Positions 13,985 through 38,794 of a stretch of 40,948 bases of DNA are shown here, in pieces. The position numbers and the translations under genes were made by a program. Below the pieces are notes generated by a model, which did no database searches, was not told the DNA's origin, and saw only the letters and a list, made by a program, of their open reading frames with translations. Position 1 is the first letter of the stretch. The number at the start of each line of letters is the position of its first letter. This DNA is from Oerskovia merdavium (GTDB lineage Bacteria; Actinomycetota; Actinomycetes; Actinomycetales; Cellulomonadaceae): positions 1 through 40,948 of the forward strand of contig NZ_JACSQF010000028.1 in assembly GCF_014836755.1 (NCBI RefSeq), given 5' to 3'.

Positions 13985-14012
13985 GCTAGCAGAGTGCTAG
14001 CGATCTGCTACG
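13985..14012 (-). promoter_or_regulatory. GCTAGC phased operator array A
   Basis: Half-sites GCTAGC (13985), GCTAGC (13996) and GCTACG (14007) are spaced 11 bp apart, 47 bases upstream of the gene starting at 13938. Minus-strand TAGCAT at 13983-13988 could be its -10 box. One of nine such arrays in the window. Confidence 0.7.
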
Positions 14013-14694
14013 AGTAGATGAACAGGCGGTGCAGCGGCACCGGCTGCGAGCGCCCGTCTGTCTCGTAGAGAACTTGGGTGAGCCAGTAGTGCTCGGGTTG
14101 CATGAGTCGGACGGTGATTTCACCGTCGATGTCGACGGGCTCACTGACGGCGATCCACCAGGACCAGGCGCCGGGCTCGTGCTGGAGGCGGACGGTGCGC
14201 CCGGTGAGGGCTCCGGCCTCGCGTGCGGGGCGGGGGCGGCGCATGGGGGGTTCGGTGAGGGAGCTGCGTACGCCGTCGAGCCAGGAGAGGGCTCCGGGGG
14301 TGGCTTGGGGGGCGGGGGACGCTATGGGTGCGTCGTCGTCGCTGCTGGGGGCTATGGCGTCGCGGTAGGCCCAGGCGTGGGCGAGGGGCCACCACTGCAT
14401 GGTGATGCCTGCGCGGGGGAAGGTCTTGGCGAGCCAGTAGGCGAAGGGGGCGGCGATGCCCAGGGCCTCGTGGGTCTCGCCTTGGCCGGGCAGGGTGGTC
14501 GAGCTGCGGTCGGTGCGGGCGAGTATCTGGCCGTCGATGAAGTACTTGCCGGGCAGGCCGATGGTCAGTTCGTCGCCGGTTGCGAGGTCGGGGATGTAGC
14601 GCGCGGGGATCGCGTGGCGGTCAGGCGGGGCCTGGGTCTGCCACGCGATGTCCGGGATGCGGAAGAACTCGGCGCCCCACGTGTCATCGCTCAT
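14008..14694 (-). CDS. Conserved-looking hypothetical protein of the transfer operon
   Basis: 228 aa from ATG 14694, which overlaps the stop of the lytic protein gene (ATGA). The sequence is rich in Trp and Tyr (AEFFRIPDIAWQTQAPPDRH; WWPLAHAWAYRDA; EPGAWSWWIAVSEPVDIDGE; MQPEHYWLTQVLYET). The C-terminal third looks like a small beta domain. There is no TM or signal peptide, so it should be cytoplasmic. I do not recognise the family; coupling to the VirB1-like gene suggests a role in mating-channel assembly. Confidence 0.65.
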   Translation of the reverse strand: MSDDTWGAEFFRIPDIAWQTQAPPDRHAIPARYIPDLATGDELTIGLPGKYFIDGQILARTDRSSTTLPGQGETHEALGIAAPFAYWLAKTFPRAGITMQWWPLAHAWAYRDAIAPSSDDDAPIASPAPQATPGALSWLDGVRSSLTEPPMRRPRPAREAGALTGRTVRLQHEPGAWSWWIAVSEPVDIDGEITVRLMQPEHYWLTQVLYETDGRSQPVPLHRLFIYS

Positions 14695-16022
14695 CGGGAC
14701 CATGCTCGCAGGTCGACGCCTCGCTCTGCCATGAACGTCACGGGGTTGAGGGGTTGGCCGTTGACGCGGGTCTCGAGGTGGAAGTGGGCGGCGGTGCCGA
14801 CGCCGGTAGCTCCTGAGAGGGCGATGCGCTGTCCGCCCTCGATGGTGTCGCCGGGCTTGACGAGCGCCTGGGACAGGTGGAGGTACCAGGTTTCGATCCC
14901 GTCAGCGTGGGTCAGGATGACGACGAGCCCGCCGCCGCCCATCCACGAGACCTTCTTGACGATGCCGTTGCTCGCGGCGACCACGGGGGTGCCGGTGGCG
15001 GCGCGGAAGTCGGTTCCTTCGTGCAGGCGCCAGGTGTTGTAGACGGGGTGGAAGCGCATTCCGAACTCGGAGTTGATGCGGCTCTTGAGGGGTGCGGTCC
15101 ACTCCCCTGCTGGGATCGTGACGCCGGGGTCGGTGGGGGTGGTGGTGTCCCCGGTGCTGGCGAGCTGGTAGTTCGCGTTGCAGAACGAGTCGATGTCGAC
15201 GCCTGCGGAGCGGTACTGGTCGGCGGTGAAGACGGTCTCGCCCTCGGTGCCCGTGCCGGGGTTCGTTCCGGTGCCGGGCAGGGTGGGGGTCGTGGGGCCC
15301 GGGGCTGTGGTGCCCTCGAGGGCGTTGACGATGGTCGTTGCTCGGGTCTCGTGCTTGGCGTAGGCGTCGGGGAAGCCGGAGACCTGGACCTTCTGAGCTG
15401 CGACGGTGAGGGCCATCTGCTCCCATCCTGCGATGTCGAGCAGGCCGCGCGGGGATGCCTTGCCGGTGGCGGGGTTGAAGTGCGGGGAGTTGGGTCCGCC
15501 GAAGAACGCGCGGGCCGCGAAGTCGGGGGTGGTGACCTGTTCGACGGTGCCCCAGCCCTGGGAGGGGCGCTGCTGGAAGAGGCCCTGGGAGTCGCGGTCG
15601 CCGTGGTTGAGGTTCTTGAGCTGGGATTCCTGGAGTGCGGTGGCGATGGCGATGATGAGCCCGCGTGTGGGGACCCCTGCGGCCTTGCCAGCGGCGATGA
15701 TCGCGCGGGCGTTGGCGATCTTCTCGCCGTCGTTGGGGCCGAAGCCCTCGACGTCGCCGCCCGTCGGGATCTGGGGGGCCTGGTCGAGCGCTGGGGGCAC
15801 GTACAGGGAGGAATCCACGCTGAACCCGATGGCTCGGCAGGCGTTCGAGGCGTTGTTGTTCTCTTCTTGGGCTGAGACGTTCGAGGCGATTCCGCCCGCC
15901 ATGATGAAGACGGCGGTCATCATCAGCGCGAACGCGCCGACGAGCTTGGGCCAGTTCGCCTTGAGCCACGAGATTGCCTGGGCCTTGAGCCAGTTCCCGG
16001 CTGCTACGAGTACAGCTTCCAT
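14691..16022 (-). CDS. VirB1-like cell-wall hydrolase, transglycosylase-like plus M23 peptidase
   Basis: 443 aa. A TM anchor (LVGAFALMMTAVFIMAGGIA) leads to a lysozyme-like domain (IIAIATALQESQLKNLNHGD; SQGLFQQRPSQGWG), with Glu in ALQES as the likely catalytic residue. After a Thr/Pro-rich linker comes a LytM/M23 domain with zinc ligands in RLHEGTDFRA (about residue 336) and AAHFHLE (about residue 410). It should open peptidoglycan locally for the conjugation channel. ATG 16022 follows GGGAGGAATCCACTC; the longer upstream extension is rejected. Two-domain hydrolases of this kind are standard in Gram-positive type IV systems. Confidence 0.92.
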   Translation of the reverse strand: MEAVLVAAGNWLKAQAISWLKANWPKLVGAFALMMTAVFIMAGGIASNVSAQEENNNASNACRAIGFSVDSSLYVPPALDQAPQIPTGGDVEGFGPNDGEKIANARAIIAAGKAAGVPTRGLIIAIATALQESQLKNLNHGDRDSQGLFQQRPSQGWGTVEQVTTPDFAARAFFGGPNSPHFNPATGKASPRGLLDIAGWEQMALTVAAQKVQVSGFPDAYAKHETRATTIVNALEGTTAPGPTTPTLPGTGTNPGTGTEGETVFTADQYRSAGVDIDSFCNANYQLASTGDTTTPTDPGVTIPAGEWTAPLKSRINSEFGMRFHPVYNTWRLHEGTDFRAATGTPVVAASNGIVKKVSWMGGGGLVVILTHADGIETWYLHLSQALVKPGDTIEGGQRIALSGATGVGTAAHFHLETRVNGQPLNPVTFMAERGVDLRAWSR

Positions 16023-16053
16023 GAGTGGATTCCTCCCTTCTTGGGTCGGTGGG

Positions 16054-16671
16054 TCAGGTGGTCGGCTGGACGTCGTTGACGAGCCAGACGTCCTTGTCGG
16101 CGTCGAGCTCGACGAACACGCGGACGTGGGTACCGGTGGTGGGGACGTCGAAGACGCCTGCCTCGGCGTTGATCGCGATATCCAGGGGCTCTCCGGCAAC
16201 GGTCACGTCGGGGGTGTTGGCCGGTTCGGTGTCCTGGAGCCGGTCGTACAGCCTGTCCGTGACCAGGGGCCGGACCCCGGCGCGCCAGCTCTCGACGCCC
16301 AGGTCTGGGCGAGCCCAGGCCGCGACGAACTCGGCTGCCGCTTCTGCGGCCGCCACGCTCGGGTTCGTCTCGGCGGGGTTGGTCTCGTAGGCGTCGTGGT
16401 TGCCGCTGTCGTGGACGGCTTCCTCGTCCTCACTCCAGGGGCCGAGAGGGCTCGAACTGGGCCACCCGTCGGGGGATGCCGCGCTGGCGGCGTCCCCCGT
16501 CCCCGCCGTCTCGGTGACGGCGGGTGCGGGCTCAGCGGCGGCGGGGGCGGTGTCGTTGCCGTTGACCTCACCGGCGATGACGACCAGGGCCAGGAAGGCC
16601 CCGATCACAGAGAACAGGCGCCACGGGGAGTGCAGCGGCCAGCGGACGATGGGAGCGATGACGTGCCACAT
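16054..16671 (-). CDS. VirB8/TcpC-like membrane protein
   Basis: 205 aa. It has a short cytoplasmic N-terminus, one TM (LFSVIGAFLALVVIAGEV), an Ala/Ser-rich linker and an extracytoplasmic domain. The domain starts AAAEAAAEFVAAWARPDLGV and includes VRPLVTDRLYDRLQD, PLDIAINAEAGVFDVP and RVFVELDADKDVWLVNDV. The layout (one TM plus an NTF2-like fold ending in a strand) is that of VirB8/TcpC channel proteins. Homology is inferred from architecture and position. Its ATG abuts the stop of the VirB6-like gene. Confidence 0.68.
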   Translation of the reverse strand: MWHVIAPIVRWPLHSPWRLFSVIGAFLALVVIAGEVNGNDTAPAAAEPAPAVTETAGTGDAASAASPDGWPSSSPLGPWSEDEEAVHDSGNHDAYETNPAETNPSVAAAEAAAEFVAAWARPDLGVESWRAGVRPLVTDRLYDRLQDTEPANTPDVTVAGEPLDIAINAEAGVFDVPTTGTHVRVFVELDADKDVWLVNDVQPTT

Positions 16672-18857
16672 CAGTAGTCCTCCTGCGCGTTGTCGAGCGA
16701 GTGCGTGGTGCTGGCGCCGTCAGGGCGCCAGATGACGAAGACCTCTTCCCCGTCGACGACCTGAACGTTCGCCTGGGAGATGCCCTCGGGAACACGCTCG
16801 TCGGCGCGCATGATCTGGACCGGGGCAGAGAGGTCGGCCTCGGGCGAGGTCGCCACGTACTCCTTGCGAGCTCGCACACCCTCGGTGCTGGCCTCTGCCG
16901 TGATCGCCGCACGCTCGGAGGGGTCCGAGGTGATCGCGGCGTGCGGGCGGTCGGCGGCGTACACCGGGGAGGGCACGGGTGCGGCCACGAGCTCGGGCCG
17001 GTTCGTCCCGGTCAGCGCGTGACGCCCCTGTGGTGTCCCCTCGATGGCTCCAGCGAAGGTGGGCCGGTTCCCGGCCCGGTTTGCCGGGACGTCCTGGCGT
17101 CGCGAGCCCGCTACCGAGACGTCCTGACCTCCATGAGCCACGACGTCCCTTCCAGGGCGTGAGCCCACGGGCAGGTACTTGAGGTTGGGGTCGACCCATC
17201 GCGCCGGCCCCTCGTCCGCCACAGGTTGCGTTGGCTTGGGCGGAGGGGTGGGGTCCGGCACGGGGGGCGTGTCGGCAACCGGTCGGTTGGCGTCCTCGGC
17301 GGCGTCGCCAACTCCACCGGCAACCGCACGGCGGGTGAACATCGAGTTGAGCTTGGCCCGGCCCAGCGCCTTCACGAATCCCAGCCCTGGCACCGAGCTC
17401 TTGGGCTTGAGCAGCTTGAACAGCAAGATCGGCATCATCATGGCGATGATGAACTTCAGGCCCCAGGCCATCTCGGACTTGAGGACTGCCGTCACCATCG
17501 AGATATTGACCAGCGCAGCGAGCCAGAACAGGACGCCGAACAGGATGATCCGCGCGACCTGGCCCACGGTGGCGATGACCCATCCTCGAGCGACCTCGAG
17601 CATCCCGAACACCCCGAGCGCGGGAACCAGCGGGATGAACAGGCGCGTTGCCCCGTAGGCGACCACGACGAACACCCCAGCAACGAGCAGGAACGGCATC
17701 GTGACGGCGATCTGGAGACCGACCGTGAAGGCCGCATCCCAGCGCCCAGCCTGGCCGGTGAGCTGACGGTATGCCGTGGCGTCCTCGGACTCGACCGACG
17801 CTGCGGTCTTGACCCACAGGTCCTTCTTGGCGTCGATGATGGCCTTGCCCTGGCCCTTGGGGTCAGCCTCGACGGTCGCAGCCTCAGCCCACGTCAGGTG
17901 GGATGCGCGGAACAGGTCCGGGCCGTAGGTCGTCGCGAGCGTGCTCGTCGACGAGCCGAGCGTGCCTTCCAGCCAGGCGTCATAGAGCGTGTTGCGGTTG
18001 ATGACGTCCATCTGCTGATTCAGCGCCCGGGTCGCCGCCGACATCTCAGCGGCTTCCTGGCCTGCCCCGGGCTGGATCGGCTCCTGGGTGACCGGCCCGT
18101 CTCCCGGCTGGGGGACGTAGGTGCCCGAAGCTCGAGCAGAAGTCGTGACCGTCTCCTGAATGAGACCGTCGACTGCCTGGGCCGAGCTCACGGGGTAGCT
18201 CATGATGTACGTCGCCGCGATCAGCACCACCAGCGCCCAGCCGGTCGACGTGATCGCCTTGGAGATGTCCGCACGCGAAGCTGCGATCAGCACGCCCGCC
18301 GCGACCAGAACGAGCACCGGCGTGAACCAGGGACCGAAGAACCCCTTCTTCACCATGTCGGTTGCCGAGGTGATCGCACCGTCGAGCGGGCTCAGCCAGG
18401 TGGGGGTGACCACGAAGTTCAGGGACGAGTGCGTCAGCGCGTTCGTGCTGGCCGACGTCGCCAGCATGAAGTTCGAGGCGCCCGTCATCATGTTCGTGCC
18501 CCACCCGGAACCGGTCAGGCACCCCGTGTCGTAGTCGACCCACTTGTACGAGTAGCCGTACACGTCGGAGATGGTGACGTTCGGGTCAGAGAACGGGTCG
18601 CCCGTGACGCCCACAGCCTCGTTCTCCGCGGTCCACGGGTTGTCGACGCCCACGAACGGCTTGGGAGCGAGCTTGCCGGGAAGGCCAGCAGAGGGGCGAG
18701 CAGGCTCGGGAGCAGGGGCGCACGCCTTCATGGGCATGATGCCCCCGACAGGGGCCGCGCTCGCGCTCAGGGCGGGGCCGGCGAGGACCAAGCCAGCCCC
18801 GACCGCGATGGTTGCCAGGACGCGAGTCGCTCGCGCCGGGAGTCGCAGCGTGCGCAT
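16671..18857 (-). CDS. VirB6/TrbL-like polytopic transfer protein
   Basis: 728 aa with a signal peptide (VGAGLVLAGPALSASAAP), an extracytoplasmic segment and at least six TM segments (PVLVLVAAGVLIAAS; WALVVLIAATYIM; AVTMPFLLVAGVFVVVAYGA; LVPALGVFGMLEV; IILFGVLFWLAALVNISMVT; FIIAMMMPILLFKLL). A cytoplasmic, proline-rich tail of about 250 residues follows (PVPDPTPPPKPTQP). This matches the large channel component of actinobacterial type IV systems (VirB6/TrbL-like). Start and upstream stop overlap (TGATG), so it is coupled to the VirB4 gene. Confidence 0.82.
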   Translation of the reverse strand: MRTLRLPARATRVLATIAVGAGLVLAGPALSASAAPVGGIMPMKACAPAPEPARPSAGLPGKLAPKPFVGVDNPWTAENEAVGVTGDPFSDPNVTISDVYGYSYKWVDYDTGCLTGSGWGTNMMTGASNFMLATSASTNALTHSSLNFVVTPTWLSPLDGAITSATDMVKKGFFGPWFTPVLVLVAAGVLIAASRADISKAITSTGWALVVLIAATYIMSYPVSSAQAVDGLIQETVTTSARASGTYVPQPGDGPVTQEPIQPGAGQEAAEMSAATRALNQQMDVINRNTLYDAWLEGTLGSSTSTLATTYGPDLFRASHLTWAEAATVEADPKGQGKAIIDAKKDLWVKTAASVESEDATAYRQLTGQAGRWDAAFTVGLQIAVTMPFLLVAGVFVVVAYGATRLFIPLVPALGVFGMLEVARGWVIATVGQVARIILFGVLFWLAALVNISMVTAVLKSEMAWGLKFIIAMMMPILLFKLLKPKSSVPGLGFVKALGRAKLNSMFTRRAVAGGVGDAAEDANRPVADTPPVPDPTPPPKPTQPVADEGPARWVDPNLKYLPVGSRPGRDVVAHGGQDVSVAGSRRQDVPANRAGNRPTFAGAIEGTPQGRHALTGTNRPELVAAPVPSPVYAADRPHAAITSDPSERAAITAEASTEGVRARKEYVATSPEADLSAPVQIMRADERVPEGISQANVQVVDGEEVFVIWRPDGASTTHSLDNAQEDY

Positions 18858-21577
18858 CAGGCCACCCCCGCTTCCTCGAGCTCGCGTTCCTCAGCGACCT
18901 GGAGCGCGCGGCGCTTGGTCGGGTCGGCGGTCGTGTTGAGCGCTGCCGACAGGCCCTCGTGGTTGGTGAAGTCGACGCGGATTCGCTCGACGCCACCGCG
19001 CCCGCCGTCGCCGCCCATGCCGTCGCGGAAGATGAACTCTCGCGGGGTACCGGTGGTCATCGAGCGGCGCGGCCTCATGCTCAGGCGCCCGAACGTCTCT
19101 TCGTACCCGACGCCGGTCGGCAGGCCGAGCAGTCGGCAGTTCTCCTTCTGTGCGTCGGCGTCGGTGGTCTTGCCGACGAACGCGGCGCCGACGAAGTTGT
19201 TGATCTTCTGCCCCAGGACGTTGCTCGCGTTCTGCGTCGAGAGCAGTGCCGAGATGTTGTGCTTGCGGGTGTCGGTGGCGATCTTCTGGACGAGCGTGGC
19301 ACCGGTCGAGACCTTGGTGATTTCGTGCACCTCATCGAGCGCGACGCCCTTGCGCTCGTGCTGGTCGGCCCGGTAGACCCCGCGCAGCGCGGACCATGCA
19401 GCCAGGTTCAGGATGGGGCGGCTCATCAGCTCGTCGTAGGACCATTCCTCGACGGCCTTGGTCTCGCTGATCTGGGCCAAGCCCTTGAGGCTGTAGATCG
19501 TCAGGCGGGCCTCGGTCTGGTTCTCGCCCCGGTTGCCCGAGTGCGGGGTGGCGAAGAACAGTCGGCTGAGCTCGCGCTCCTTGGCCTCCTGGAGACGGGA
19601 GTGGACCGTGGCCGTCACGGGGTCCCCGTGCTCGCCCACACCACGAGCGCGCAGCGCGATCAGCACGGCCTCGATGGTGGAGTGGGGGCGGGCCTCAGCC
19701 GCCGAGATGGCGTCGCGCAGGACGCTCTGGACGTCCTCACGAGCCGCCGTCGCGGGCGGCAGGCACCAACGCAGCGTGTCGTAGGTCAGGTCTCGACGCT
19801 GGGCCTCGGCCGCGCTCTTGGCGAGCCTCCACGCGGTGTCGGGGTCCTTCTCGCGGCGGAACCACTCGCGCTGGGGCTCGGGCACGAGCGCGTAGGGGTT
19901 CAGGGCGCCGGGCTCGGAGTTGAGCAGGTTGACGGCCTTGGACACGCCCTTGAACTCCGGGAGGTCGGCCAGCGCCGTGAGGCGTCCCGAGGGGTCCATG
20001 ACCGTCCAGGTGACGCCCTGTGCGGCGGTCTTGTAGACGATGCCGCCCATGAGGAAGGACTTGCCCGCGCCGAGCCCGCCGACACAGGGGACCAGGCCCG
20101 AGCCCTCGACGACCTCGGGGCCGTACCAGGGGTCCCAGGTGACGGCGCGCTCTGCGAAGCCTGCGGTGTAGCCGATGAGCACCCCGCGCTTGTCGCCAAC
20201 CTCGGCGGTCGCGGCGGGCACGCCTGCGGCGAACTTGAGGATGGGCATACGGCGGGTGTGGCCGGAGTTGGCCAGGGGCTCGCCGGGGACGAACTCGCGA
20301 GCGAGTCGGTACTGGTCGAACTCGCGCTCGAGCTTGATGCCGGGCTTGTAGAGGGTCTGGACGGCCTTGGCGCGGGCCAGGGCCTCTTCCTCGGTGCGGC
20401 CTGAGACCGCGATGCGGAACCAGCCGCGCACGCGGGTAGAGAGGCCGTCGAAGCCCGAACGCATCTCGTCTTCCACCTCGGAGGCGCGCGCGGCCTGGCG
20501 TGCGAGCTGGCGCGGGGGCTCCTTGCTGTGGTCCTTGACGTAGTGGTCGATCTGGGAGTTGATCCGGTCGGCCAGCTTGTTCATCTCGCGGGCGGTGTCC
20601 TCGGGACGTCGCACGTCGATGCGGAAGGACCACTCGACCGGGAAGCGGAGCTTGTCGGTCTTGGCGATCCAGGGCTCTTCCTTCTCGGGGATGAACATCT
20701 CTCCCATGCGGCCCACGGTCAGCACGACCACGTGGCGGCGGATCGGGCCGTCTCCCTGGGAGGAATCGACGCGCACCGACTGAGCCAGGGGCTCGGCGCT
20801 CCACTCCACGCCAGCGCTGAACTCGTCCAGGTCGTCCTTCTCCCAGGCGAATTCCTCCACGGTGTCCTGGGCCGGGACGGGGCATCCGAGGGCGAAGGAC
20901 CGGGCCAGCAACCACGCCATGTCGTTGCCGACAGCGGGCACGGCCTCGATGCCGGGACCGGCCATGATGGCGTCGGTCTCGTCGAGCTTGGCCTGGAGGG
21001 CCTCGAGCTCGCGGCGGGCGACGTCGGAGACGATGCGCGAGGCCACGTCGACCACGGCAGAGCGGGTGCCCATGTCGACGCCGAAGTAGACGAGCTTGTC
21101 GGACTGCATCCGGTTGCGGAGCTGGAGCTGATCGCGCTCGAGGATGGCCTGGAAGCCCTTGGTGGGGGCCGGGCTGTTCTCCCATGCCGCCTGAGCCCAC
21201 GTCGCGACGGGGTAGGGGCGGGTCGTGATGCGTCCGTAGATCGTGCGGCCCACGAGCTCAGCGACCTGGGCCGCGTGCGTGGTGATGAGCCCTTCCCCGT
21301 CAGCGACGGAGCGGAAGGACCACATCTGCGGGTCCAGGACGTACCAAGCGATCATGCGCTTGTCGGTGAAGGTGACGTGGTTGGCCACTCGCGAGAGCGC
21401 CCAGCCCATCGCGGCACCGCGAGGCTTGGGAACGTCCGGGTGGGCGGCGCGGCGGCTCTTGCCCTTGAGGCGGTCCCCGGTCGCCTCTTCCTCGCTCGGG
21501 TCGTAGTCGATGACGACGGGCTCGTCGTCGGTCGTGGTCTTGTTCTTGCCGAACAGGCCCTTGAGGTTGACGTGCAT
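18857..21577 (-). CDS. virB4: VirB4-family conjugation ATPase
   Basis: 906 aa. The N-terminal region (ALSRVANHVTFTDKRMIAWY; RFPVEWSFRIDVRRPEDT) corresponds to the VirB4 CagE/TrbE-like half. The C-terminal half is a P-loop ATPase with Walker A VGGLGAGKSFLMGG near residue 500 and Walker B KGVALDEVHEI near residue 744, plus a later ALLSTQNASNVLGQKINNF segment as in VirB4/TraC motors. It should energise channel assembly and transfer at the inner face of the membrane. The ATG follows AAGGGGGAGTGAA. Length and motifs are complete. Confidence 0.9.
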   Translation of the reverse strand: MHVNLKGLFGKNKTTTDDEPVVIDYDPSEEEATGDRLKGKSRRAAHPDVPKPRGAAMGWALSRVANHVTFTDKRMIAWYVLDPQMWSFRSVADGEGLITTHAAQVAELVGRTIYGRITTRPYPVATWAQAAWENSPAPTKGFQAILERDQLQLRNRMQSDKLVYFGVDMGTRSAVVDVASRIVSDVARRELEALQAKLDETDAIMAGPGIEAVPAVGNDMAWLLARSFALGCPVPAQDTVEEFAWEKDDLDEFSAGVEWSAEPLAQSVRVDSSQGDGPIRRHVVVLTVGRMGEMFIPEKEEPWIAKTDKLRFPVEWSFRIDVRRPEDTAREMNKLADRINSQIDHYVKDHSKEPPRQLARQAARASEVEDEMRSGFDGLSTRVRGWFRIAVSGRTEEEALARAKAVQTLYKPGIKLEREFDQYRLAREFVPGEPLANSGHTRRMPILKFAAGVPAATAEVGDKRGVLIGYTAGFAERAVTWDPWYGPEVVEGSGLVPCVGGLGAGKSFLMGGIVYKTAAQGVTWTVMDPSGRLTALADLPEFKGVSKAVNLLNSEPGALNPYALVPEPQREWFRREKDPDTAWRLAKSAAEAQRRDLTYDTLRWCLPPATAAREDVQSVLRDAISAAEARPHSTIEAVLIALRARGVGEHGDPVTATVHSRLQEAKERELSRLFFATPHSGNRGENQTEARLTIYSLKGLAQISETKAVEEWSYDELMSRPILNLAAWSALRGVYRADQHERKGVALDEVHEITKVSTGATLVQKIATDTRKHNISALLSTQNASNVLGQKINNFVGAAFVGKTTDADAQKENCRLLGLPTGVGYEETFGRLSMRPRRSMTTGTPREFIFRDGMGGDGGRGGVERIRVDFTNHEGLSAALNTTADPTKRRALQVAEERELEEAGVA

Positions 21578-22325: not shown

Positions 22326-22353
22326 GTTAGGGAATTGCTAGCAAGTTGCTACG
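22326..22353 (-). promoter_or_regulatory. GCTAGC phased operator array B, transfer-operon promoter region
   Basis: Half-sites GTTAGG (22326), GCTAGC (22337) and GCTACG (22348) are spaced 11 bp apart. They lie 70-97 bases upstream of the VirB2-like start. An inverted repeat CGTGT/ACACG lies between at 22304-22321. The array is well placed to repress the whole transfer operon. 22354-22494 holds nothing else recognisable. Confidence 0.72.
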
Positions 22354-22494: not shown

Positions 22495-24642
22495 CTAGGG
22501 CCTGACCACGGGAACGGTCTCGTCGTCGCGCAGACTCAGGACACCGAGCTCGTCGCCGGGCACCGTCCGGTAGGTCAGCGCCAGGTACTCGGGGTCCTGG
22601 TCGTCCGGGTCGACCGACTCGACGACGGCCACGACCGGCCCGTCGTCCGAGTCGACGAGGATGCGTGCGCCGTTCTCGAGCTCGGTCGCCGGTCGCTCGT
22701 CGGCCTCGGGCATCCGCTCCGGTGCGGCAGGCAGCTCGAGGACGGGTTCTGTGGTGCCCGGCATGTCCCCCATGTCGGGGGACACTACAGGCGCGTCATC
22801 GACGGTGGGGGCGTCGTCCACGCCCGCCAATTCCTCAAGCTCGGCGGGCTCGTCGTCGCGGACCTCGACCGCGCCGGGCGCCGCGTCGGGCAGCGGGACC
22901 CCGAGGCCCTCGAGGATGGCACGGTCGGCAAGCGAGAGGCCCGCAACGACCTTCGGCGTCCAGAACACCTGGGCGTGCTCGGGCTGAACACCCATCGACG
23001 GGGAGACCCACGCACGACCGGGGTAGGACTCGAGTCCGCTCGTGGCGATGCGCGAGTTGAAGACCTGTTCGGAGGCGACGGGCTCGAGGTTTCGCAGTGC
23101 GATGCGCACCGAGAACTGGAGACGCGCGGACGTCGAGAGCCAGGATGCATCGGCCTGCTGGGTGGCCAGGATGACGTGCACGCGGGCCTCACGGCCCAGG
23201 CGCAGAATCGACCGCAGGGACTTCATCACCGGGTGCTCGGAGCCGGTACCGGCAACCCCGTTCTCTTCCTTGTACTTGGCCTTGCCCTTGGTCATCCAAT
23301 ATTCGTTGAGGACTTCCGCGAACTCCTGGCCCTCGTCGATCACAAGGACAACCGGGTCGATCTGGTCGCGAGAAACCTGCCCGGATCGCAGGTCGCGATA
23401 GCGGGCCATCATGTCCGCATGGACGTTCTCGACGGCCTGAATCATCTCTTCCGGTTCGCTGGCCGGAGGCAACACGCCAGGCACTGCGTCAATACCCATC
23501 AGACCGACGTACTTGGGATCGACCGGGGTCACCTTCACGTGATCGGGAAGCCCAGTGAGAATCGTCATCAGGAGGACCGACTTACCACCACCGGTGCCAC
23601 CGACGATGAGCATGTGGGGTAGCGGCTCGTCCATGTCCCATGCGGCAATTCCACCGCCGCGAAGCTGGGCGAACTCGATGACCATAGGCTTCGTCGGATT
23701 GCGCGGCGGGCGGGGAATGCGTGAGGGGAGCTCGGCCAGGCGCTCGATGCGCGCCCGGTCGTTAGCGGTGTCCCAGGTGGCCGTGATGGTGAAGCCGAGC
23801 GCGGTTTGCAGCGCAGCGGCGATGCGCCCTCGGAAAGGAATTGCGGCGATGCGGTTCGCGCGAGCGGCGGGCCAGGAGAATTCCACTCCCTCGATGCGGC
23901 CCGATTCTCCCCGGTCGATCTTGTCGACCCTGGCGCCGGGCAACATGCTTCCCAGGACGTCGCCCAGGCGGGTCGTCGCTTCGTCCTGGGCAACCGGTGC
24001 AGCAACCTCGGCTCGAGCGGTGATGAGGGCGGTCCCCGGGCTCCAGGTGATCGTCACGGGCGCGCCGAGCCGACCGCTGACAAGGGCCTCGAGCTCACCG
24101 GTCTTCTTGGTGTCGGGAGTCATGCTCTGGGGGTAGCGCCAGGCCACCGGGAGGGCGGCGACGTCCGCCGCGCGCCACTTCGGGGTGAGTAGCTTGTCGG
24201 GGGTTCGCTGGTCGCTCGTGGCGGGGCCGAGAGCCTGCCCGAGCCACACCAGGCGCCGGGCGATGTTGGCGCGTCGGGCGAGCTCACGCGCGCCAAGGAT
24301 GCCGACCACAACAGCCACCACCGACAGAGCGACGGCGGCGACCTTCCATCCGGCGAGCCAGCCGCCTCCAGCGCATAGCACGGTGCACGTCGCGAACAGC
24401 GCGAAGCCCCGGCCGCGGCCAAGCCAGCTCCCCAGCGATAGCGCCCATAGCCCCAGGGCGACGGCGGCGATTTCGACGGCGAGCTCGTCGCGCGTGAAGG
24501 CACGGCCAGCTACGACGACCGCGAGCACCAGAGCGCCCCAACCTGCGACGAGCGCGGGCCGAATCCCGGCCCAGGCGTCGGGTACTGGTAGGTGCCTGAG
24601 CTCTCGGCTGGTGATTGTGGAAGCGGTCTGTGTCGTACTCAT
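22495..24642 (-). CDS. FtsK/SpoIIIE-type DNA translocase (TraB/TcpA-like coupling protein)
   Basis: 715 aa from ATG 24642, preceded by AGCAGGGGGACACC. The N-terminal membrane segments include PALVAGWGALVLAVVVAG, AVEIAAVALGLWALSLG and VAAVALSVVAVVVGILGA. A middle domain is followed by an FtsK motor with Walker A IVGGTGGGKSVLLM near residue 350 and Walker B PVVLVIDEGQ near residue 433. HVILATQQADASWL is the usual sensor region. An acidic tail of about 100 residues follows. In a system with VirB4 and a relaxase it is likely the coupling protein (TcpA type) that pumps DNA into the channel. Confidence 0.88.
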   Translation of the reverse strand: MSTTQTASTITSRELRHLPVPDAWAGIRPALVAGWGALVLAVVVAGRAFTRDELAVEIAAVALGLWALSLGSWLGRGRGFALFATCTVLCAGGGWLAGWKVAAVALSVVAVVVGILGARELARRANIARRLVWLGQALGPATSDQRTPDKLLTPKWRAADVAALPVAWRYPQSMTPDTKKTGELEALVSGRLGAPVTITWSPGTALITARAEVAAPVAQDEATTRLGDVLGSMLPGARVDKIDRGESGRIEGVEFSWPAARANRIAAIPFRGRIAAALQTALGFTITATWDTANDRARIERLAELPSRIPRPPRNPTKPMVIEFAQLRGGGIAAWDMDEPLPHMLIVGGTGGGKSVLLMTILTGLPDHVKVTPVDPKYVGLMGIDAVPGVLPPASEPEEMIQAVENVHADMMARYRDLRSGQVSRDQIDPVVLVIDEGQEFAEVLNEYWMTKGKAKYKEENGVAGTGSEHPVMKSLRSILRLGREARVHVILATQQADASWLSTSARLQFSVRIALRNLEPVASEQVFNSRIATSGLESYPGRAWVSPSMGVQPEHAQVFWTPKVVAGLSLADRAILEGLGVPLPDAAPGAVEVRDDEPAELEELAGVDDAPTVDDAPVVSPDMGDMPGTTEPVLELPAAPERMPEADERPATELENGARILVDSDDGPVVAVVESVDPDDQDPEYLALTYRTVPGDELGVLSLRDDETVPVVRP

Positions 24643-24701
24643 GGTGTCCCCCTGCTGGTCCTGTGTTCGGCGCGCCGGGTGGGCTCTCGCTTGCCCGTCG
24701 C

Positions 24702-24759
24702 TTGACAACCCGGTTAGGCTGGCCGTGCTGCGTCGACGTAGGAGAAAGCGGGCACGGCC
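24702..24759 (+). ncRNA. Candidate structured RNA element, copy 1
   Basis: TTGACA (24702), eight bases, TAGGCT (24715), then an 8-bp stem GGCCGTGC (24721-24728) with GCACGGCC (24752-24759) around a 23-base loop containing TCGACGTAGGAG and AAGCGG. Copy 2 at 32909 keeps the loop nearly unchanged while stem positions change in pairs. It lies in the gap between the small HTH gene and the coupling ATPase gene, antisense to both. Strand is inferred from the TTGAC/TANGCT boxes. Confidence 0.6.
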
Positions 24760-29390: not shown

Positions 29391-29803
29391 GCTGCGATGT
29401 CCTCTCGGGTCAGGTCTGCCAGGGTCACGCGGGGGTTCTTGGCGCGGGGACGGACCCACGCGCCGCCCGCGATGCCCTCGAACGCGGGTTCGTCGTCCAG
29501 CCACGTCCGGCACTCGGCCAGCACGGGGCACTGAGCGCACCGCTCGAGCGCACCGCGTGCCTGGGCCTCGGTGCTCGGGCTGGTGGTCTCGGGGGCCGTT
29601 GCGCAGGCCGCGAACAGCGGCCAGCGCTCGGGGTCGATGATGGGCGCGCCGACGATGCGGAGCAGGTCCGCCGTCGTCACCTCGTCCGGTGCGGTGTCGT
29701 GGGTCGGCTGGGGGCCGTGCGTAAGCTCGTCGCGCAGCTCGGCCACGAGCTCGAGGCGCCCCTGGGGCGTCAGAACGCGCTCGTCCATCGTCACGGCGCT
29801 CAC
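29387..29803 (-). CDS. WhiB-family iron-sulfur protein
   Basis: 138 aa. The WhiB core near the C-terminus has four cysteines (WPLFAACATAPE; ERCAQCPVLAECRTWL), followed by FEGIAGGAWVRPRAK, equivalent to the G-[VI]-W-G-G beta turn and basic tail. WhiB proteins bind a 4Fe-4S cluster and regulate transcription through the sigma factor. The N-terminal 60 residues are an unusual helical extension. The GTG at 29803 overlaps the repA stop (GTGA) and fits the coupling of this operon; an ATG at 29788 is the alternative. Confidence 0.82.
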   Translation of the reverse strand: MSAVTMDERVLTPQGRLELVAELRDELTHGPQPTHDTAPDEVTTADLLRIVGAPIIDPERWPLFAACATAPETTSPSTEAQARGALERCAQCPVLAECRTWLDDEPAFEGIAGGAWVRPRAKNPRVTLADLTREDIAA

Positions 29804-30753
29804 TTGCCGAGCTCGCGGGCCGCGCGGCGCGCGACGTGGGGAGCGGACGGGAGGAGCTTGAGCCCCTTGTCCTCGATGACCACGCGGGCGGCCGGATAGA
29901 GGGTGGTGACCTCGGCCAAGTGGCCGACGAACGCCTCCTTGAACTTCCGGGTGCGGCTGTACTGCCCGCCGAACTGGAGCTCGAGAAGTTCCCACGGGAT
30001 GAGGGTCTGGCCCTTGAGGTAGCTCATCCGGTACGTCAACCAGGTGTAGATGTCGAGACGCATAGGCGAGCCCTGGAGCGCCTTCATCGCGCGCAGGTCG
30101 ACGGGGACCGGGGCCGTGACGATGGACTCGAAGAACGGCTCACTGAGCGTGATCGTGTTGTTCCAGAGCGCACCCTGTTCTGGGTCGTTGCCGTCGCGGT
30201 CGGGAAGCCAGAGCTCGAACGATGAGGCCACGTTGAAGTTCTCGCCCTGAACCCACTGCCCAGCGTCGTAGCGGTCAAAGCGCTGGTGCTGCATCGTCGA
30301 TCCGACGAGGCGGTGCACCTGTTCCTTGAGACGACGCCCGTCCGCTCCGCTCCTGCCCATCCCGACCTTCGCCAAGAACTCGTTCAGGCTTCCGCCCATG
30401 TCGAGCCGGGGGCTCTGGGTGCGGACTGCCTCGGTGGCCATCCACGTCATGAGGTATCGCGGGATGACGCCGAACGGGTAGCCGTCGCGGGTCGAGCCGT
30501 CCGGGTTGATGAGGGCCGCTGGACGGACGATCAGAACCTCGTTCCCGTTGCGCCGTTCCCAGCGGGAGACGTCGCCCGGGTCGCGGTAGGGCAAGGCGAG
30601 CTGTGCCCAGATGCGGGCCTGGAAGCCAACCGTTCCCGCCGAGAGGGCATCCTCGCGCTCGATGGCCAGGGCGTCGTCCAGAAGACGCTTCTGCTTGGGC
30701 GTGATGACGAGCTCAACCTTCGCCCCGTCGCTCTTCGTCTGGCGCTCACTCAT
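29800..30753 (-). CDS. repA: Plasmid replication initiator RepA
   Basis: 317 aa. The order of blocks fits the plasmid-encoded RepA family (PF04796-like): PFGVIPRYLMTWMATEAVRT, LNEFLAKVGMGRSGADGRRL, RLVGSTMQHQRF, SMRLDIYTWLTYRMSYLKG-like (PMRLDIYTWLTYRM) and the basic C-terminal KGLKLLPSAPHV. These proteins bind iterons and open the origin; five iterons lie 0.7 kb upstream at 31454-31668. ATG 30753 overlaps the stop of an 18-codon leader reading frame, so repA translation is probably coupled to it. The two codons further upstream (MV) are not needed. Confidence 0.88.
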   Translation of the reverse strand: MSERQTKSDGAKVELVITPKQKRLLDDALAIEREDALSAGTVGFQARIWAQLALPYRDPGDVSRWERRNGNEVLIVRPAALINPDGSTRDGYPFGVIPRYLMTWMATEAVRTQSPRLDMGGSLNEFLAKVGMGRSGADGRRLKEQVHRLVGSTMQHQRFDRYDAGQWVQGENFNVASSFELWLPDRDGNDPEQGALWNNTITLSEPFFESIVTAPVPVDLRAMKALQGSPMRLDIYTWLTYRMSYLKGQTLIPWELLELQFGGQYSRTRKFKEAFVGHLAEVTTLYPAARVVIEDKGLKLLPSAPHVARRAARELGK

Positions 30754-30802
30754 GACCAATCACCGCCTGGCGGCTATCGTTGACCCTGAGAGTCTGGGAC
30801 AT
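30746..30802 (-). CDS. Leader peptide coupled to repA
   Basis: 18 codons, MSQTLRVNDSRQAVIGHE. ATG 30802 is preceded by GAGAGAAGG at a normal distance. Its stop (30746-30748) overlaps the repA start, so ribosomes finishing the leader could restart on repA. The layout resembles tap-repA or repB-repA coupling in iteron and IncB-type plasmids. The ribosome binding site lies within the span of the predicted antisense RNA. A 28-codon version starting inside the hairpin is possible but less likely. Confidence 0.65.
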   Translation of the reverse strand: MSQTLRVNDSRQAVIGHE

Positions 30803-31134: not shown

Positions 31135-31374
31135 ATGCCACTCCCCCGGACTCCAGCCACCCACACCGACGAGAGCGACGTTCGCGAGCACGCGCGCCGC
31201 GTCTCTCAGGAGATGGCTGAAGCCGAGGCGCGCATGGACGCCCTCAGGGACGAGCGCGCCGCCATCATCCGCGAGCTACGAAACGCCGGAGCGACATGGC
31301 TCAACGTGGCCGACGTCCTCGGCGTGACCAAGCAGCGCGCGCACAAGCTCGGTCGGGATCACGACATCCCCTAG
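31135..31374 (+). CDS. Small HTH protein beside the origin
   Basis: 79 aa. A charged helix (VREHARRVSQEMAEAEARMD; LRDERAAIIRELR) precedes an HTH (GATWLNVADVLGVTKQRAHK) and a short end. The plan is like that of the 96-aa protein at 24794. GAGGATCAA precedes the ATG. Its stop codon TAG lies inside the first half-site of operator array D, next to the iterons. It is divergent from repA and may regulate repA or replication. Confidence 0.75.
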   Translation: MPLPRTPATHTDESDVREHARRVSQEMAEAEARMDALRDERAAIIRELRNAGATWLNVADVLGVTKQRAHKLGRDHDIP

Positions 31375-31409
31375 CGTTTTGCTAGCAGACTGCTAGTTTA
31401 GTGCCTAGC
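31370..31409. promoter_or_regulatory. GCTAGC phased operator array D, next to the origin
   Basis: Half-sites CCTAGC (31370), GCTAGC (31381), GCTAGT (31392) and CCTAGC (31404) are spaced 11-12 bp apart. The array starts in the stop codon of the small HTH gene and ends 45 bases before the first iteron, so a bound protein could affect origin use. Confidence 0.7.
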
Positions 31410-31453
31410 GTGCGTCTCGGCGGGGTTCAGGGTGTGGATGACGCAAGTTGTCC

Positions 31454-31668
31454 ACGTGCATCTAGGGGCGCACGCGAATGACCCATGCGCGTACCACTGC
31501 CTGGGTACGTGCATTTAGGGGCGCTCTGAGCGTCTGCGCAGGTCAGGCCACGTGCATTTAGGGGCGCCGGGTGACGCGGGTCACGCCCAAACCGGGCCTA
31601 ACTGGACGTACGTCCAACTGCTGTCCACGTGCATCTTGGGGCGGGGGGGTACGTGCATTTAGGGGCGC
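31454..31668 (+). repeat. Replication origin: five iterons
   Basis: Direct repeats of ACGTGCATYTAGGGGCGC start at 31454, 31507, 31550, 31627 and 31651. The third and fifth share the full 18-bp core with the second; the fourth is ACGTGCATCTTGGGGCGG. Two are preceded by TTGTCCACG or CTGTCCACG, one base off a DnaA box (TTGTCCACA). Spacing is irregular (53, 43, 77 and 24 bases). Beside repA this is the expected RepA-binding origin. The less GC-rich stretch at 31705-31760, with two CCCCTGTAG words, may be the unwinding region. Confidence 0.88.
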
Positions 31669-32158
31669 ACCTCCCTGCATCGTTGCAGGTCAGCACGCGT
31701 TTTTGGGCCTCCCCCTGTAGTTCTATTCCCCTGTAGAAAGATCTCCAGTAGTTGTCTGGTCCGGTCCTGTGGATCGGGGGACAGAGCTCCGAGCGCAAGC
31801 GCTCGACGAAACTGCGTGCGAACCCTGGTCAGGCCCTCCAGGGCTGTCCCTGCCTCCTAGCATCCTGCTAGGTCTCGTTGAGGTACTTGGCTCGTCCCCG
31901 ACCCGTCCTGGTTCTCGAGGATGGATCGTCGCTTTGGTCTTGGCATGGGCTGAGAGACGAAAGAGCAGCCCAGACGACACGAGGGGGCTCGGGCTCGTGT
32001 ACGGCTCTCTGAGGGCTGCAAGGAGCCGCGAGCGCCGTCGGGTCGTCTGGAGGCTCTGACGGGCCCGTACGGGCTGGTGGGGGGTGTTGCCGGGGTTGTC
32101 TTGGGTTCACCCGCTGGTGGGGTTCGCTGAGGCGGCGTGGGTCGCTACGGTTCCGCTC
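31669..32158. other. Non-coding flank of the origin
   Basis: About 490 bases without a credible gene. It holds the less GC-rich 31705-31760 stretch and the palindrome CCTAGCATCCTGCTAGG (31856-31872). Before the next gene there is a weak promoter: TTCGCT, 17 bases, TACGGT at about 32146-32151, seven bases before the ATG at 32159. Confidence 0.5.
31856..31872. promoter_or_regulatory. Palindromic CTAGC site
   Basis: CCTAGCATCCTGCTAGG is a perfect inverted repeat around TCC. It uses the same CTAGC half-site as the phased arrays, but here as an inverted pair. It lies 190 bases beyond the last iteron. Confidence 0.5.
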
Positions 32159-34907: not shown

Positions 34908-34971
34908 TTGTGCGGCCCGGTTCCCGTGTGTACTCTGAACTTGCTAGCACATGCTAGCAACTTGCTAGCAG
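34908..34971 (+). promoter_or_regulatory. Promoter and GCTAGC array F
   Basis: TTGTGC (34908), 17 bases, TACTCT (34931-34936). GCTAGC half-sites follow at 34943, 34953 and 34964, that is 10 and 11 bp apart, covering the expected transcription start. The DUF6573 start is at 34989. Confidence 0.78.
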
Positions 34972-34988: not shown

Positions 34989-35387
34989 ATGGACGACATG
35001 ATGACCGAGATTTTCGGCCCGGTGATCCACGGCTACAGCCGCGAGAAGGCCCTGCGGGACGGCGAACTCGTCGACGTCGGGGACGACCTCGCCCGCGAGG
35101 TGACCCGCCAGTTCCCGCTCGCGCTCACCCGGGCCGCGCACGAGGAAGCCGTGGCCTGGAACCACGGCCCGCACCAGGACGAGACCGGACGGCTCCGGGA
35201 CGTCCTGCACATGGCCCGGCGCTCGATGCTCACCAACCCGGGCCGCGAGCGCGCCGACTTCCGCGTCCTGCGGGTGCCCAACCGGCCCGGGGCGACGCGG
35301 GCGCTGGCCCTGACGCTCTCGGTCGTGATCGGCCCCGGCGACGACGGGAACCCCGTCATCACGGTGATGCTCCCCGACGAGGACTGA
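34989..35387 (+). CDS. DUF6573-family protein
   Basis: 132 aa from ATG 34989 after GAAGGGGAACGAC. The conserved order is FGPVIHGYSREKALRDGELV, DLAREVTRQFPLALTRAAH, HQDETGRLRDVLHMA, DFRVLRVPNRPG and PVITVMLPDED. DUF6573 proteins are frequent on actinobacterial plasmids and phages; their function is not known to me. A dead paralogue lies at 560-2035. This intact copy heads the plus-strand series of small genes under operator array F. Confidence 0.85.
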   Translation: MDDMMTEIFGPVIHGYSREKALRDGELVDVGDDLAREVTRQFPLALTRAAHEEAVAWNHGPHQDETGRLRDVLHMARRSMLTNPGRERADFRVLRVPNRPGATRALALTLSVVIGPGDDGNPVITVMLPDED

Positions 35388-36018: not shown

Positions 36019-36081
36019 TTGTGCTAGCAATGGCTAGCGTGTAACTTCGTACTTGCTAGCAAACCGCTAGCGCTTGCTAGT
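36019..36081 (+). promoter_or_regulatory. Promoter and GCTAGC array G
   Basis: TTGTGC (36019), 17 bases, TAACTT (36042-36047). Half-sites GCTAGC lie at 36023, 36033, 36055 and 36066, with GCTAGT at 36076, spaced 10-11 bp or about two turns apart. It is the largest array, with sites in the spacer as well as downstream. Confidence 0.8.
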
Positions 36082-37597: not shown

Positions 37598-37661
37598 TTG
37601 TGCGTGCCCGAGGACTCGTGTAACTTCGTACTTGCTAGCAACACGCTAGCAACTTGCTAGC
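37598..37661 (+). promoter_or_regulatory. Promoter and GCTAGC array H
   Basis: TTGTGC (37598), 17 bases, TAACTT (37621-37626), followed by GCTAGC at 37634, 37645 and 37656, exactly 11 bp apart. The -35 box begins at the foot of the preceding terminator. The gene starts at 37679. Confidence 0.82.
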
Positions 37662-37678
37662 AGGACCGAAGGGGAATC

Positions 37679-38095: not shown

Positions 38096-38101
38096 CCGAC
38101 C

Positions 38102-38134: not shown

Positions 38135-38195
38135 CCACACCCGGCGCCCAGCTCGCGCCCACGCCGACCACCCAGCGCCACCGAAGGGGACCCAC

Positions 38196-38498: not shown

Positions 38499-38521
38499 GC
38501 GACCAACCCCGACCCGCCCCG

Positions 38522-38556
38522 CGGCGCCCCCGCACCCACCAGGTGCAGGGGCGCCG
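38522..38556. repeat. GGCGCC-family long hairpin, copy 4
   Basis: CGGCGCCCCCGCACC pairs with GGTGCAGGGGCGCCG around CACCA. It probably terminates the preceding gene. Confidence 0.8.
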
Positions 38557-38602
38557 TCGTCATGCCCGGACCACCACCACGCACGGATCGAGAGAACCGG
38601 CC

Positions 38603-38708
38603 CCGGCGCTCGCGGCCCGTGTTCGCATGTGCGCTGTCGACGCTCGAGCTCGAAGGCCAGCTAGAGGATCACCGCGACGTTCGCGCAGGTCAGCAAGGGG
38701 ACGCAATG
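38603..38708 (+). repeat. Duplicated leader-like segment, copy 1
   Basis: Runs from CCGGCGCTCG to GCAGGTCAGCAAGGGGACGC plus AATG at 38705-38708. It aligns with 39253-39346. The end looks like a ribosome binding site and start codon, but no conserved gene follows, so it may be the leader of a lost gene. Confidence 0.55.
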
Positions 38709-38736
38709 TGCGCGGCACACCGCCAAGCGCCAGAGG

Positions 38737-38794
38737 TTGCCAGTGCGACATCCCATCTATATAGTTGCTAGCAAGTGGCTAGCTATCGACTAGC
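38737..38794 (+). promoter_or_regulatory. Promoter and GCTAGC array I
   Basis: TTGCCA (38737), 17 bases, TATAGT (38760-38765), followed by GCTAGC (38767), GCTAGC (38778) and ACTAGC (38789), 11 bp apart. The gene starts at 38815 after CCGAAGGGG. Confidence 0.8.

What the first reader, a model, noticed from the sequence alone, without database searches (positions are those of the whole stretch)
13985..38794. Plasmid-wide arrays of GCTAGC half-sites phased at 10-11 bp
At least nine intergenic sites (13985, 22326, 26311, 31370, 34943, 36023, 37634, 38767, plus the inverted pair at 31856) carry two to five GCTAGC-like hexamers, mostly exactly 10 or 11 bp apart, so they sit on one face of the helix. 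They lie at promoters of the transfer operon, parAB, the origin and the small-gene operons. Four plus-strand arrays follow a TTG(T/C)C(-type) -35, a 17-bp spacer and a TAnnnT -10, covering the start of transcription. This is the signature of one cooperative repressor. The RHH ParB-like protein at 25118 is my first candidate (omega/ParG proteins act this way); the HTH proteins at 24794, 27106 and 31135 are alternatives.
Basis: partly seen in the sequence, partly recalled or inferred. Interest (0 to 1): 0.78.

Follow-up and report, generated by a model that had tools for sequence, protein, structure and literature searches.

The report
Helix-phased operator arrays across a plasmid
A bacterial plasmid carries the same short DNA word, repeated every 10 to 11 bases (one helix turn), at many of its control regions, which suggests that one plasmid protein, most likely its partition protein, both sorts the plasmid into daughter cells and quiets its genes.

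Summary
The window (an Oerskovia plasmid contig) has 21 GCTAGC hexamers against 6.6 expected. All 13 exact pairs closer than 40 bp lie 10, 11, 21, 22, 32 or 33 bp apart, and none of the eight 10/11-bp pairs is in a gene I called. The site reads better as a palindrome, TTGCTAGCAA, two inverted AGCAA pentamers; all four perfect copies in the 4.49-Mb genome are on this contig. The window's three TTGTGC-17-TANNNT promoters each sit 7-8 bp before array sites. Arrays also lie at parA, the transfer operon and beside the origin.

Best explanation: operators, probably also centromere, of the plasmid's own ParB-like partition protein (25118-25609), acting as a global repressor. Support is comparative. 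A Clavibacter plasmid with related ParA and a weakly similar parA-adjacent gene has AGCAA arrays at exactly 11 bp (18 pairs at 11/22 bp, shuffles 0.015, in the 39.8 kb examined). Stretches of five other plasmids sharing the 27106/27795 genes have 0-1. The HTH rivals fit less well. No binding was tested, and the protein's fold is unconfirmed.

Closest analogues: StbA/stbDR of R388 and omega/parS of pSM19035. Separately, many phage replication-initiator genes carry the same phased word inside the gene.

The parts
13985..14012 (.). array: GCTAGC-11-GCTAGC-11-GCTACG, inside the transfer operon, just before the minus-strand gene 13630-13980
   Evidence: same spacing in sister contig, third site changed
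22326..22353 (.). array GTTAGG-11-GCTAGC-11-GCTACG upstream of the minus-strand transfer operon (22256 downwards)
   Evidence: perfect decamer TTGCTAGCAA at 22335
26311..26375 (.). array of five sites (steps 11, 15, 22, 11; the 15 is off phase) in the parA-parB promoter region
31370..31409 (.). array CCTAGC-11-GCTAGC-11-GCTAGT (plus CCTAGC 12 bp on) next to the origin, overlapping the stop codon of 31135-31374
   Evidence: sister changes GCTAGT to GCTAGC
31856..31872 (.). pair CCTAGC-11-GCTAGG on the other side of the origin; second site GCTAGC in the sister
34943..34969 (+). array of three exact GCTAGC (10, 11 bp) in the leader of the DUF6573 gene
36023..36081 (+). array of five sites (10, 22, 11, 10) overlapping promoter and leader
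37634..37661 (+). array of three exact GCTAGC (11, 11 bp) in the leader of 37679-38095
38767..38794 (+). array GCTAGC-11-GCTAGC-11-ACTAGC in the leader of 38815-39186
34908..34936 (+). promoter TTGTGC-17-TACTCT
36019..36047 (+). promoter TTGTGC-17-TAACTT (two hexamers lie within -35 and spacer)
37598..37626 (+). promoter TTGTGC-17-TAACTT
38737..38765 (+). promoter-like TTGCCA-17-TATAGT
   Evidence: number of such matches no higher than in shuffles
25606..26262 (-). ParA ATPase, 218 aa, no room for an N-terminal DNA-binding domain
   Evidence: Pfam AAA_31 4.8e-8 at residues 11-59
25118..25609 (-). ParB-like protein, 163 aa, basic low-complexity N-terminus, two ribbon-helix-helix-like segments by eye; favoured binder of the arrays
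   Evidence: overlaps parA by 4 bp; sequence; weak similarity to the Clavibacter parA-adjacent gene
24794..25084 (-). 96-aa HTH-like protein in the same operon; rival binder
   Evidence: sequence; no match in plasmids or in L435 (best E 0.28)
31135..31374 (+). 79-aa coiled-coil/HTH-like protein beside the array at 31370; rival binder
   Evidence: phrog_686 8.6e-10; relatives in plasmid stretches without arrays
27106..27798 (-). 230-aa HTH-like protein; disfavoured as binder
   Evidence: 37-40% relatives in the six plasmids examined, five of them without arrays
29800..30759 (-). replication initiator RepA (RepA_C family)
   Evidence: PF04796 1.5e-23
31452..31677 (+). five origin iterons, core ACGTGCATYTWGGGGCG, unlike the GCTAGC arrays
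34989..35387 (+). DUF6573 gene downstream of the 34943 array
   Evidence: PF20213 3e-19
18857..21577 (-). VirB4/TcpF-like transfer ATPase in the operon behind the 22326 array
   Evidence: AAA_10 1.1e-18; TcpF model 2.4e-21 (below its cut-off)
22495..24708 (-). FtsK/SpoIIIE-type protein, same strand behind parA, 25118 and 24794
   Evidence: PF01580 6.1e-13

Best explanation
The arrays are operators, and at parA and the origin probably the centromere, of a single plasmid-encoded DNA-binding protein that is most likely the ParB-like partner of ParA (25118-25609). A dimer would bind one palindromic decamer TTGCTAGCAA (two inverted AGCAA half-sites). Dimers on neighbouring decamers one helical turn apart would stack on one face and bind cooperatively. 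At the four plus-strand units the array covers the start of transcription, so bound protein would block RNA polymerase or its escape. At parA it would give autoregulation and at the transfer operon it would hold transfer low. On this reading, entry into a new cell without the protein would give a burst of expression that then shuts itself off. Shown here: the arrays, phasing, promoter geometry, restriction to the plasmid, and the parallel in one related plasmid. Inferred: which protein binds, cooperativity, repression, centromere role.
For: Phasing and placement outside called genes. Promoter geometry. TTGCTAGCAA occurs 4 times in 4.49 Mb, all on this contig. ParA is short, with its ATPase domain starting at residue 11, and the array is in the promoter of parA-parB, whose genes overlap. 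Covariation: Clavibacter pCSL1 has ParA 40.7% identical, and its parA-adjacent gene is the best match of 25118 among the ORFs of the stretch (phmmer 7.7e-4, next 0.41). In the 39.8 kb of its 94.8 kb that I fetched, AGCAA has 11 pairs at 11 bp, 7 at 22 bp and none off phase; all 18 are intergenic, shuffle mean 0.015. AGCAA ranks first of all 5-mers there by phased minus off-phase pairs. Stretches (35-50 kb) of five other plasmids with 27106 and 27795 relatives have 0-1 such pairs at 11 bp. In two of three Streptomyces plasmids with the order ParA-x-FtsK, gene x matches Pfam centromere-binding ParB (PF18064), and one of the two matches PDB entry 3no7, so this gene position is that of a ParB.
Against: No binding data. 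25118 has no Pfam hit, even cut to its C-terminal half. Its model is poor (pLDDT 54) and the fold search gave nothing usable. Similarity to the pCSL1 protein is weak: BLASTP E 0.002-0.03, and the C-terminal half alone does not beat shuffles (18.1 versus up to 21.2 bits). By BLASTP, 25118 scores better against an RHH-like protein of L438, a stretch without arrays (E 4e-5 over a region that includes the low-complexity part). Only one plasmid besides the sister supports covariation; the arrays seen there span about 10 kb, and AGCAA was looked at after over-represented words had been listed there. A Janibacter plasmid stretch with a partial relative of the pCSL1 protein has no arrays. In the six arrays that the sister covers, hexamers are not significantly more conserved than flanks (5/120 versus 33/498 changed, p 0.40; versus in-array spacers p 0.09). 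Seven of the eight exact pairs lie in four promoter-array units that look like copies of one another, so these are not independent events.
Confidence: 0.55

Rival explanations
1. The arrays are operators of the small HTH-like protein 24794-25084, encoded in the same operon, not of the ParB-like protein.
For: Same strand and array-bearing promoter as parA-parB, HTH-like segment by eye, no match in the plasmid collection, so as restricted to this lineage as 25118.
Against: No relative in the pCSL1 stretch, which has the parallel arrays (best phmmer E 0.28).
Confidence: 0.16
2. The arrays are bound by 31135-31374, a coiled-coil/HTH-like protein that polymerises head to tail (in the manner of BldC or Xis, recalled), with its gene next to the 31370 array.
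For: Adjacent to an array here; a 31135-like gene (phmmer 1.1e-3) also lies next to an array in pCSL1.
Against: 31135-like genes are found in plasmid stretches without arrays (L436 3.6e-5, L438 2.5e-5, L440 1.2e-3). No array at its own promoter.
Confidence: 0.12
3. Another plasmid or host protein binds the arrays (27106, RepA, or a chromosomal factor).
For: 27106 has a weak HTH match at its N-terminus; the origin is flanked by arrays.
Against: 27106 relatives sit in all six plasmids examined, five without arrays. RepA has its own distinct iterons. The perfect decamer is absent from the rest of the genome.
Confidence: 0.12
4. The arrays act as RNA: neighbouring hexamers pair into hairpins in the leaders.
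For: Self-complementary hexamers can pair; one leader of six folds well (z -2.99).
Against: The other five z-scores are -0.25 to -1.9 (the sixth stretch folded holds only the edge of an array). Arrays also lie beside the origin. Degenerate sites (GCTACG, GCTAAC, CCTAGC) do not keep pairing, and pairing would not need 10/11-bp phase.
Confidence: 0.04

Closest known systems
StbA and its direct repeats (stbDR), plasmid R388
   Same: Direct repeats at an 11-bp pitch (9 bp + 2) at the promoter of a segregation operon and, as 2-3 copies, at three other maintenance promoters; StbA represses its own, establishment and transfer promoters (PMC3098194, PMC3937220; passages read).
   Different: The repeat is a palindromic decamer here; a ParA with a ParB-like partner is present; no StbA-named family hit among the proteins scanned.
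Omega (RHH ParB) and parS of pSM19035
   Same: RHH ParB sites overlap the promoters of several plasmid genes, including those of the partition proteins; two dimers bind adjacent repeats with high affinity (PMC9499535; passages read).
   Different: 7-bp non-palindromic contiguous repeats, 7-10 per site at six sites; here 2-5 palindromic sites at mostly 10/11 bp at nine places.
ParB of pCXC100 (CB_ParB_C, PDB 3no7; link of entry to plasmid recalled)
   Same: Type Ib ParB with a disordered N-terminus and RHH C-terminus, whose centromere has direct repeats only (PMC5016525; passages read). Its family occupies the same gene position in two related Streptomyces plasmids.
   Different: 25118 does not match CB_ParB_C.
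Clavibacter sepedonicus plasmid pCSL1 (arrays found here; no literature search on them)
   Same: AGCAA pentamer, 11-bp pitch, arrays at parA and six other intergenic places of the stretch, related ParA.
   Different: AGCAA mostly in direct orientation rather than as inverted pairs.

Membership tests
Type Ib ParABS partition system | ParA ATPase without N-terminal HTH | tested here: met
   218 aa, AAA_31 starts at residue 11
Type Ib ParABS partition system | small centromere-binding protein gene directly after parA | tested here: met
   25118-25609 overlaps 25606-26262 by 4 bp; that it binds a centromere is not shown
Type Ib ParABS partition system | centromere-binding protein has a disordered N-terminus and an RHH C-terminus | tested here: inconclusive
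   low-complexity N-terminus and RHH-like pattern by eye, paired helices in a low-confidence model, no Pfam hit, fold search without usable match
Type Ib ParABS partition system | repeat array upstream of the par operon | tested here: met
   five sites at 26311-26375, two of them exact hexamers
Type Ib ParABS partition system | protein binds the repeats and stabilises the plasmid | not testable with these tools
   needs bench work
StbA/stbDR system | StbA-family protein | tested here: inconclusive
   no StbA/TraK-named hit in the Pfam scans of window proteins; no direct comparison with StbA was made
StbA/stbDR system | about 11-bp-pitch repeats at the segregation operon and other plasmid promoters | tested here: met
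RepA iterons | arrays are the origin iterons of RepA | tested here: not met
   a separate family of five iterons lies at 31452-31677
Phage O-like initiator with GCTAGC arrays | initiator N-terminal domain present in the window | tested here: not met
   no motif in six frames; best hmmsearch E 4.4

The most novel reading that the evidence does not exclude
A lineage of actinobacterial partition proteins that act as global plasmid repressors through helix-phased AGCAA arrays. The pentamer and the 11-bp pitch are kept between distant plasmids, while the arrangement switches from direct AGCAA repeats (pCSL1) to inverted pairs that form a palindromic decamer (window). One protein would couple segregation, transfer, replication origin and accessory genes.
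Probability: 0.37. Interest if true: 0.68.

Novelty: new variant of a known kind. Interest (0 to 1): 0.55.

Why it matters
Global repression by partition proteins is known from a few model plasmids, such as R388 and pSM19035. This would extend it to actinobacterial plasmids with a very regular operator code that can be read from sequence alone. It would also give a testable case of how a protein and its arrays evolve together (direct versus inverted AGCAA). The phased-pentamer count is simple and picked out a second plasmid among relatives chosen by protein similarity.

Tried and rejected
Whole-collection scans for GCTAGC triples. They gave no third plasmid that I recognised; I did not study the other 13 in depth.
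Counting triples alone in viral contigs was uninformative: GCTAGC 52 versus control CGATCG 61. Flanking bases were informative: YGCTAGCR at all three sites in 31/52, against 5/61 for CGATCG and 7/28 for GCTAGC at 12/13 bp (20 of those 28 are 12/12).
Cargo-gene relatives: ten plasmid-like contigs of the same family with 34989-like genes and five with 36443-like genes (12 contigs in all, stretches of 11-40 kb) have no 6-mer with 4 or more phased pairs above background, and none of the four candidate regulators by tblastn at 1e-3.
Relatives of 31135 or 25118 in viral contigs: none confirmed. Relatives of 25118 in plasmids or phages: none; in 396 order-level genomes, nine weak matches outside the own genome (E 2e-5 to 7e-4), which I take as low-complexity.
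27106: 27 plasmid records match; I examined stretches of six.
RNA hairpins, RepA iterons and phage-type initiator: see membership and rivals.
Curtobacterium plasmids: the parA-promoter word TTACAGA recurs 7 and 10 times against 0.9 and 1.0 expected. This suggests a different repeated word there, but it is post hoc, and the two plasmids are related.
Papers: 8 searches. GCTAGC with operator, plasmid and repressor gave one unrelated paper. A search for the decamer as letters gave 763 papers; the 20 listed titles were not on plasmid regulation, and the rest were not seen. Phage iterons with GCTAGC gave one paper, not relevant. 'Not in print' is not claimed.
Full report
What the window is. The window is contig C20 of a 4.49-Mb genome. 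A same-genus genome holds a 31,979-base contig (G006:C28) that is 94-99% identical over long stretches; a record of the same length, Oerskovia douganii NZ_JACSPN010000035.1, appears. I therefore take the host as Oerskovia. The contig ends do not overlap, so closure is not shown. Genes: RepA 29800-30759 (RepA_C), ParA 25606-26262, an FtsK-type protein and a VirB4/TcpF-like ATPase with an M23 peptidase, and small plus-strand genes from 34989 on, one of them DUF6573.

The observation. Twenty-one GCTAGC hexamers occur where shuffles give 6.58. The 13 exact distances under 40 bp are 10, 11, 21, 22, 32 and 33 only, that is one, two or three helical turns. Eight exact pairs at 10/11 bp stand against a shuffle mean of 0.003, and against 0.08 for random placement in non-coding DNA; none lies in a gene that I called. 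One-mismatch hexamers follow the same phase. The base counts around 18 array hexamers give TTGCTAGCAA. All four perfect copies of this decamer in the genome lie in the window contig, against three copies of the reversed control word in the genome. GCTAGC and its overlaps are the only 6-mers in the window with at least 4 phased pairs and over four times the off-phase rate.

Where the arrays sit. Nine places: inside the transfer operon (13985), before the transfer operon (22326), at the parA promoter (26311-26375, five sites with one off-phase step of 15), on both sides of the origin (31370, 31856), and in four plus-strand promoter-leader units (34943, 36023, 37634, 38767). All three TTGTGC-17-TANNNT sites of the window lie in these units (0.02 expected), and the fourth unit has TTGCCA-17-TATAGT (a scan whose one match is no more than shuffles give). 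The first decamer core after the -10 begins 2 to 8 bp behind it, so the arrays cover the presumed start of transcription. The four units align over promoter, array and ribosome site and are probably copies of one cassette; seven of the eight exact pairs lie in them. The origin has its own five iterons, so the arrays are not RepA iterons.

Conservation. Six of the nine places lie in the part shared with the sister contig. There the arrays and nearly all hexamers are kept, but hexamers are not significantly more conserved than their surroundings (5 of 120 versus 33 of 498 positions changed, p 0.40). Two of the five core changes turn a degenerate site into GCTAGC. The sister is too close for more.

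Cargo versus regulator. In the same bacterial family, relatives of the DUF6573 gene (ten contigs) and of 36443 (five contigs), twelve contigs in all, examined as stretches of 11-40 kb, show no comparable phased 6-mer and none of the four candidate regulators. The 140 bases printed upstream of the ten DUF6573 relatives show no such array. The arrays are thus a property of this plasmid, not of these genes.

Which protein. I asked which candidate travels with phased arrays. A 27106 match is found in 27 plasmid records. I fetched stretches of six; all six carry relatives of 27106 (37-40%) and 27795 (52-56%). One, Clavibacter pCSL1 (39.8 of 94.8 kb fetched), also has the closest ParA (40.7%). Its parA-adjacent gene is the best match of 25118 among its ORFs (phmmer 7.7e-4, next 0.41) and shares a DW-x-x-L stretch near the N-terminus (by eye). 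In this stretch AGCAA, the half-site of TTGCTAGCAA, has 11 same-strand pairs at 11 bp, 7 at 22, 3 at 33, 2 at 44 and none at any other distance from 6 to 44. Shuffles give 0.015 for 11 plus 22 bp. All 18 such pairs are intergenic, in seven clusters within about 10 kb, including the parA promoter and the region before the 27795 relative. AGCAA ranks first of all 5-mers there by phased minus off-phase pairs. I came to the word after listing over-represented words at the pCSL1 parA promoter and between its genes, so its choice is partly post hoc, though it is the window's own half-site. The other five stretches (L436-L440, 35-50 kb) have at most one pair at 11 bp, although they carry 27106 and, in three, 31135-like genes. 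24794 has no relative in the pCSL1 stretch. The parA-adjacent protein is therefore the candidate that fits best.

Limits of that argument. One informative positive plasmid and five negatives. Protein similarity is weak (BLASTP E 0.002-0.03; the C-terminal half alone does not exceed shuffles). By BLASTP, 25118 matches an RHH-like protein of L438 better (E 4e-5, low-complexity part included), and L438 has no arrays. A Janibacter plasmid stretch with a partial relative of the pCSL1 protein has no arrays.

Is 25118 an RHH ParB? By eye it has a basic low-complexity N-terminus and two RHH-like segments. No Pfam RHH or ParB model matches, the single-sequence model is poor with paired helices, and its fold search has no match at E 0.001 or better. 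In three Streptomyces plasmids with the order ParA-x-FtsK, gene x belongs to PF18064, centromere-binding ParB, in two and to no family in one; one of the two matches PDB 3no7. Position supports ParB; the fold remains open.

Mechanism. A palindromic decamer on one helical face at 10/11-bp pitch suggests one dimer per decamer with contacts between neighbours (inference). At the leader arrays this would block transcription start or escape; at parA it would give autoregulation. R388 is the best-studied parallel: StbA binds 9-bp repeats spaced by two, present at its own and three other promoters, represses establishment and transfer promoters, and the plasmid network overshoots on entering new cells (PMC3098194, PMC3937220; passages read). 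Omega of pSM19035 controls several promoters through 7-bp repeats (PMC9499535; passages read).

Alternatives. RNA hairpins: only one of six stretches folds clearly better than shuffles, and arrays also lie outside leaders. Other binders are weighed in the rivals.

A separate phage result. IMG/VR contigs hold phased GCTAGC triples with YGCTAGCR at all sites in 31 of 52 stretches, against 14 of 118 in genomes, 7 of 28 at 12/13 bp and 5 of 61 for a control word. In seven of 52 the array lies inside a gene with an N-terminal motif around PPWIKLH; the five of these seven that I scanned match replication-protein families. Six of the 80 come from contigs already found by array; without them it is 41 of 74. 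Codons point to DNA-level constraint: of 45 of the 80 loci taken, 19 had the Ala-Ser motif looked for, 16 of them written GCTAGC. The likely reading is origin iterons inside the initiator gene. No relative of that domain is in the window, so this looks like convergence on the same word.

Verdict. The arrays are real, confined to the plasmid as far as searched, and very probably binding sites of a plasmid protein (about 0.9). That this protein is the ParB-like 25118 is the best-supported reading (about 0.55). It is a new variant of a known kind: a partition protein as global repressor.

Noticed in passing
L355-L434 (IMG/VR), array mostly 100-320 bases into the gene: Phage replication-initiator genes with an N-terminal PPWIKLH domain carry phased GCTAGC pairs in or near the gene in 47 of 80 loci (41 of 74 without contigs already found by array), probably origin iterons; none at the off-phase distances counted.
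   Followed up: partly
L435 (part of Clavibacter pCSL1) 19296-29533: AGCAA arrays at an exact 11-bp pitch in seven intergenic clusters; the other 55 kb of this plasmid was not looked at.
   Followed up: partly
L436 37142, L440 41630-41652 and other intergenic places: In two related Curtobacterium plasmids the parA-promoter word TTACAGA recurs 7 and 10 times (0.9 and 1.0 expected), 5 of 7 and 9 of 10 intergenic, some copies 8 or 16 bp apart.
   Followed up: partly
34890-38820: Four promoter-array-ribosome-site units look like copies of one cassette placed before different genes.
   Followed up: partly
31452-31677: Five origin iterons with core ACGTGCATYTWGGGGCG beside RepA.
   Followed up: no
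11158: A single good decamer TTGCTAGCGA next to an inverted repeat seen by eye; no phased partner.
   Followed up: no
36443-37546: Protein with a hydrophobic N-terminal part, a proline-rich middle and an HTH-like C-terminus, 42-69% identical over 140-349 residues to genes in five contigs of the same family.
   Followed up: no
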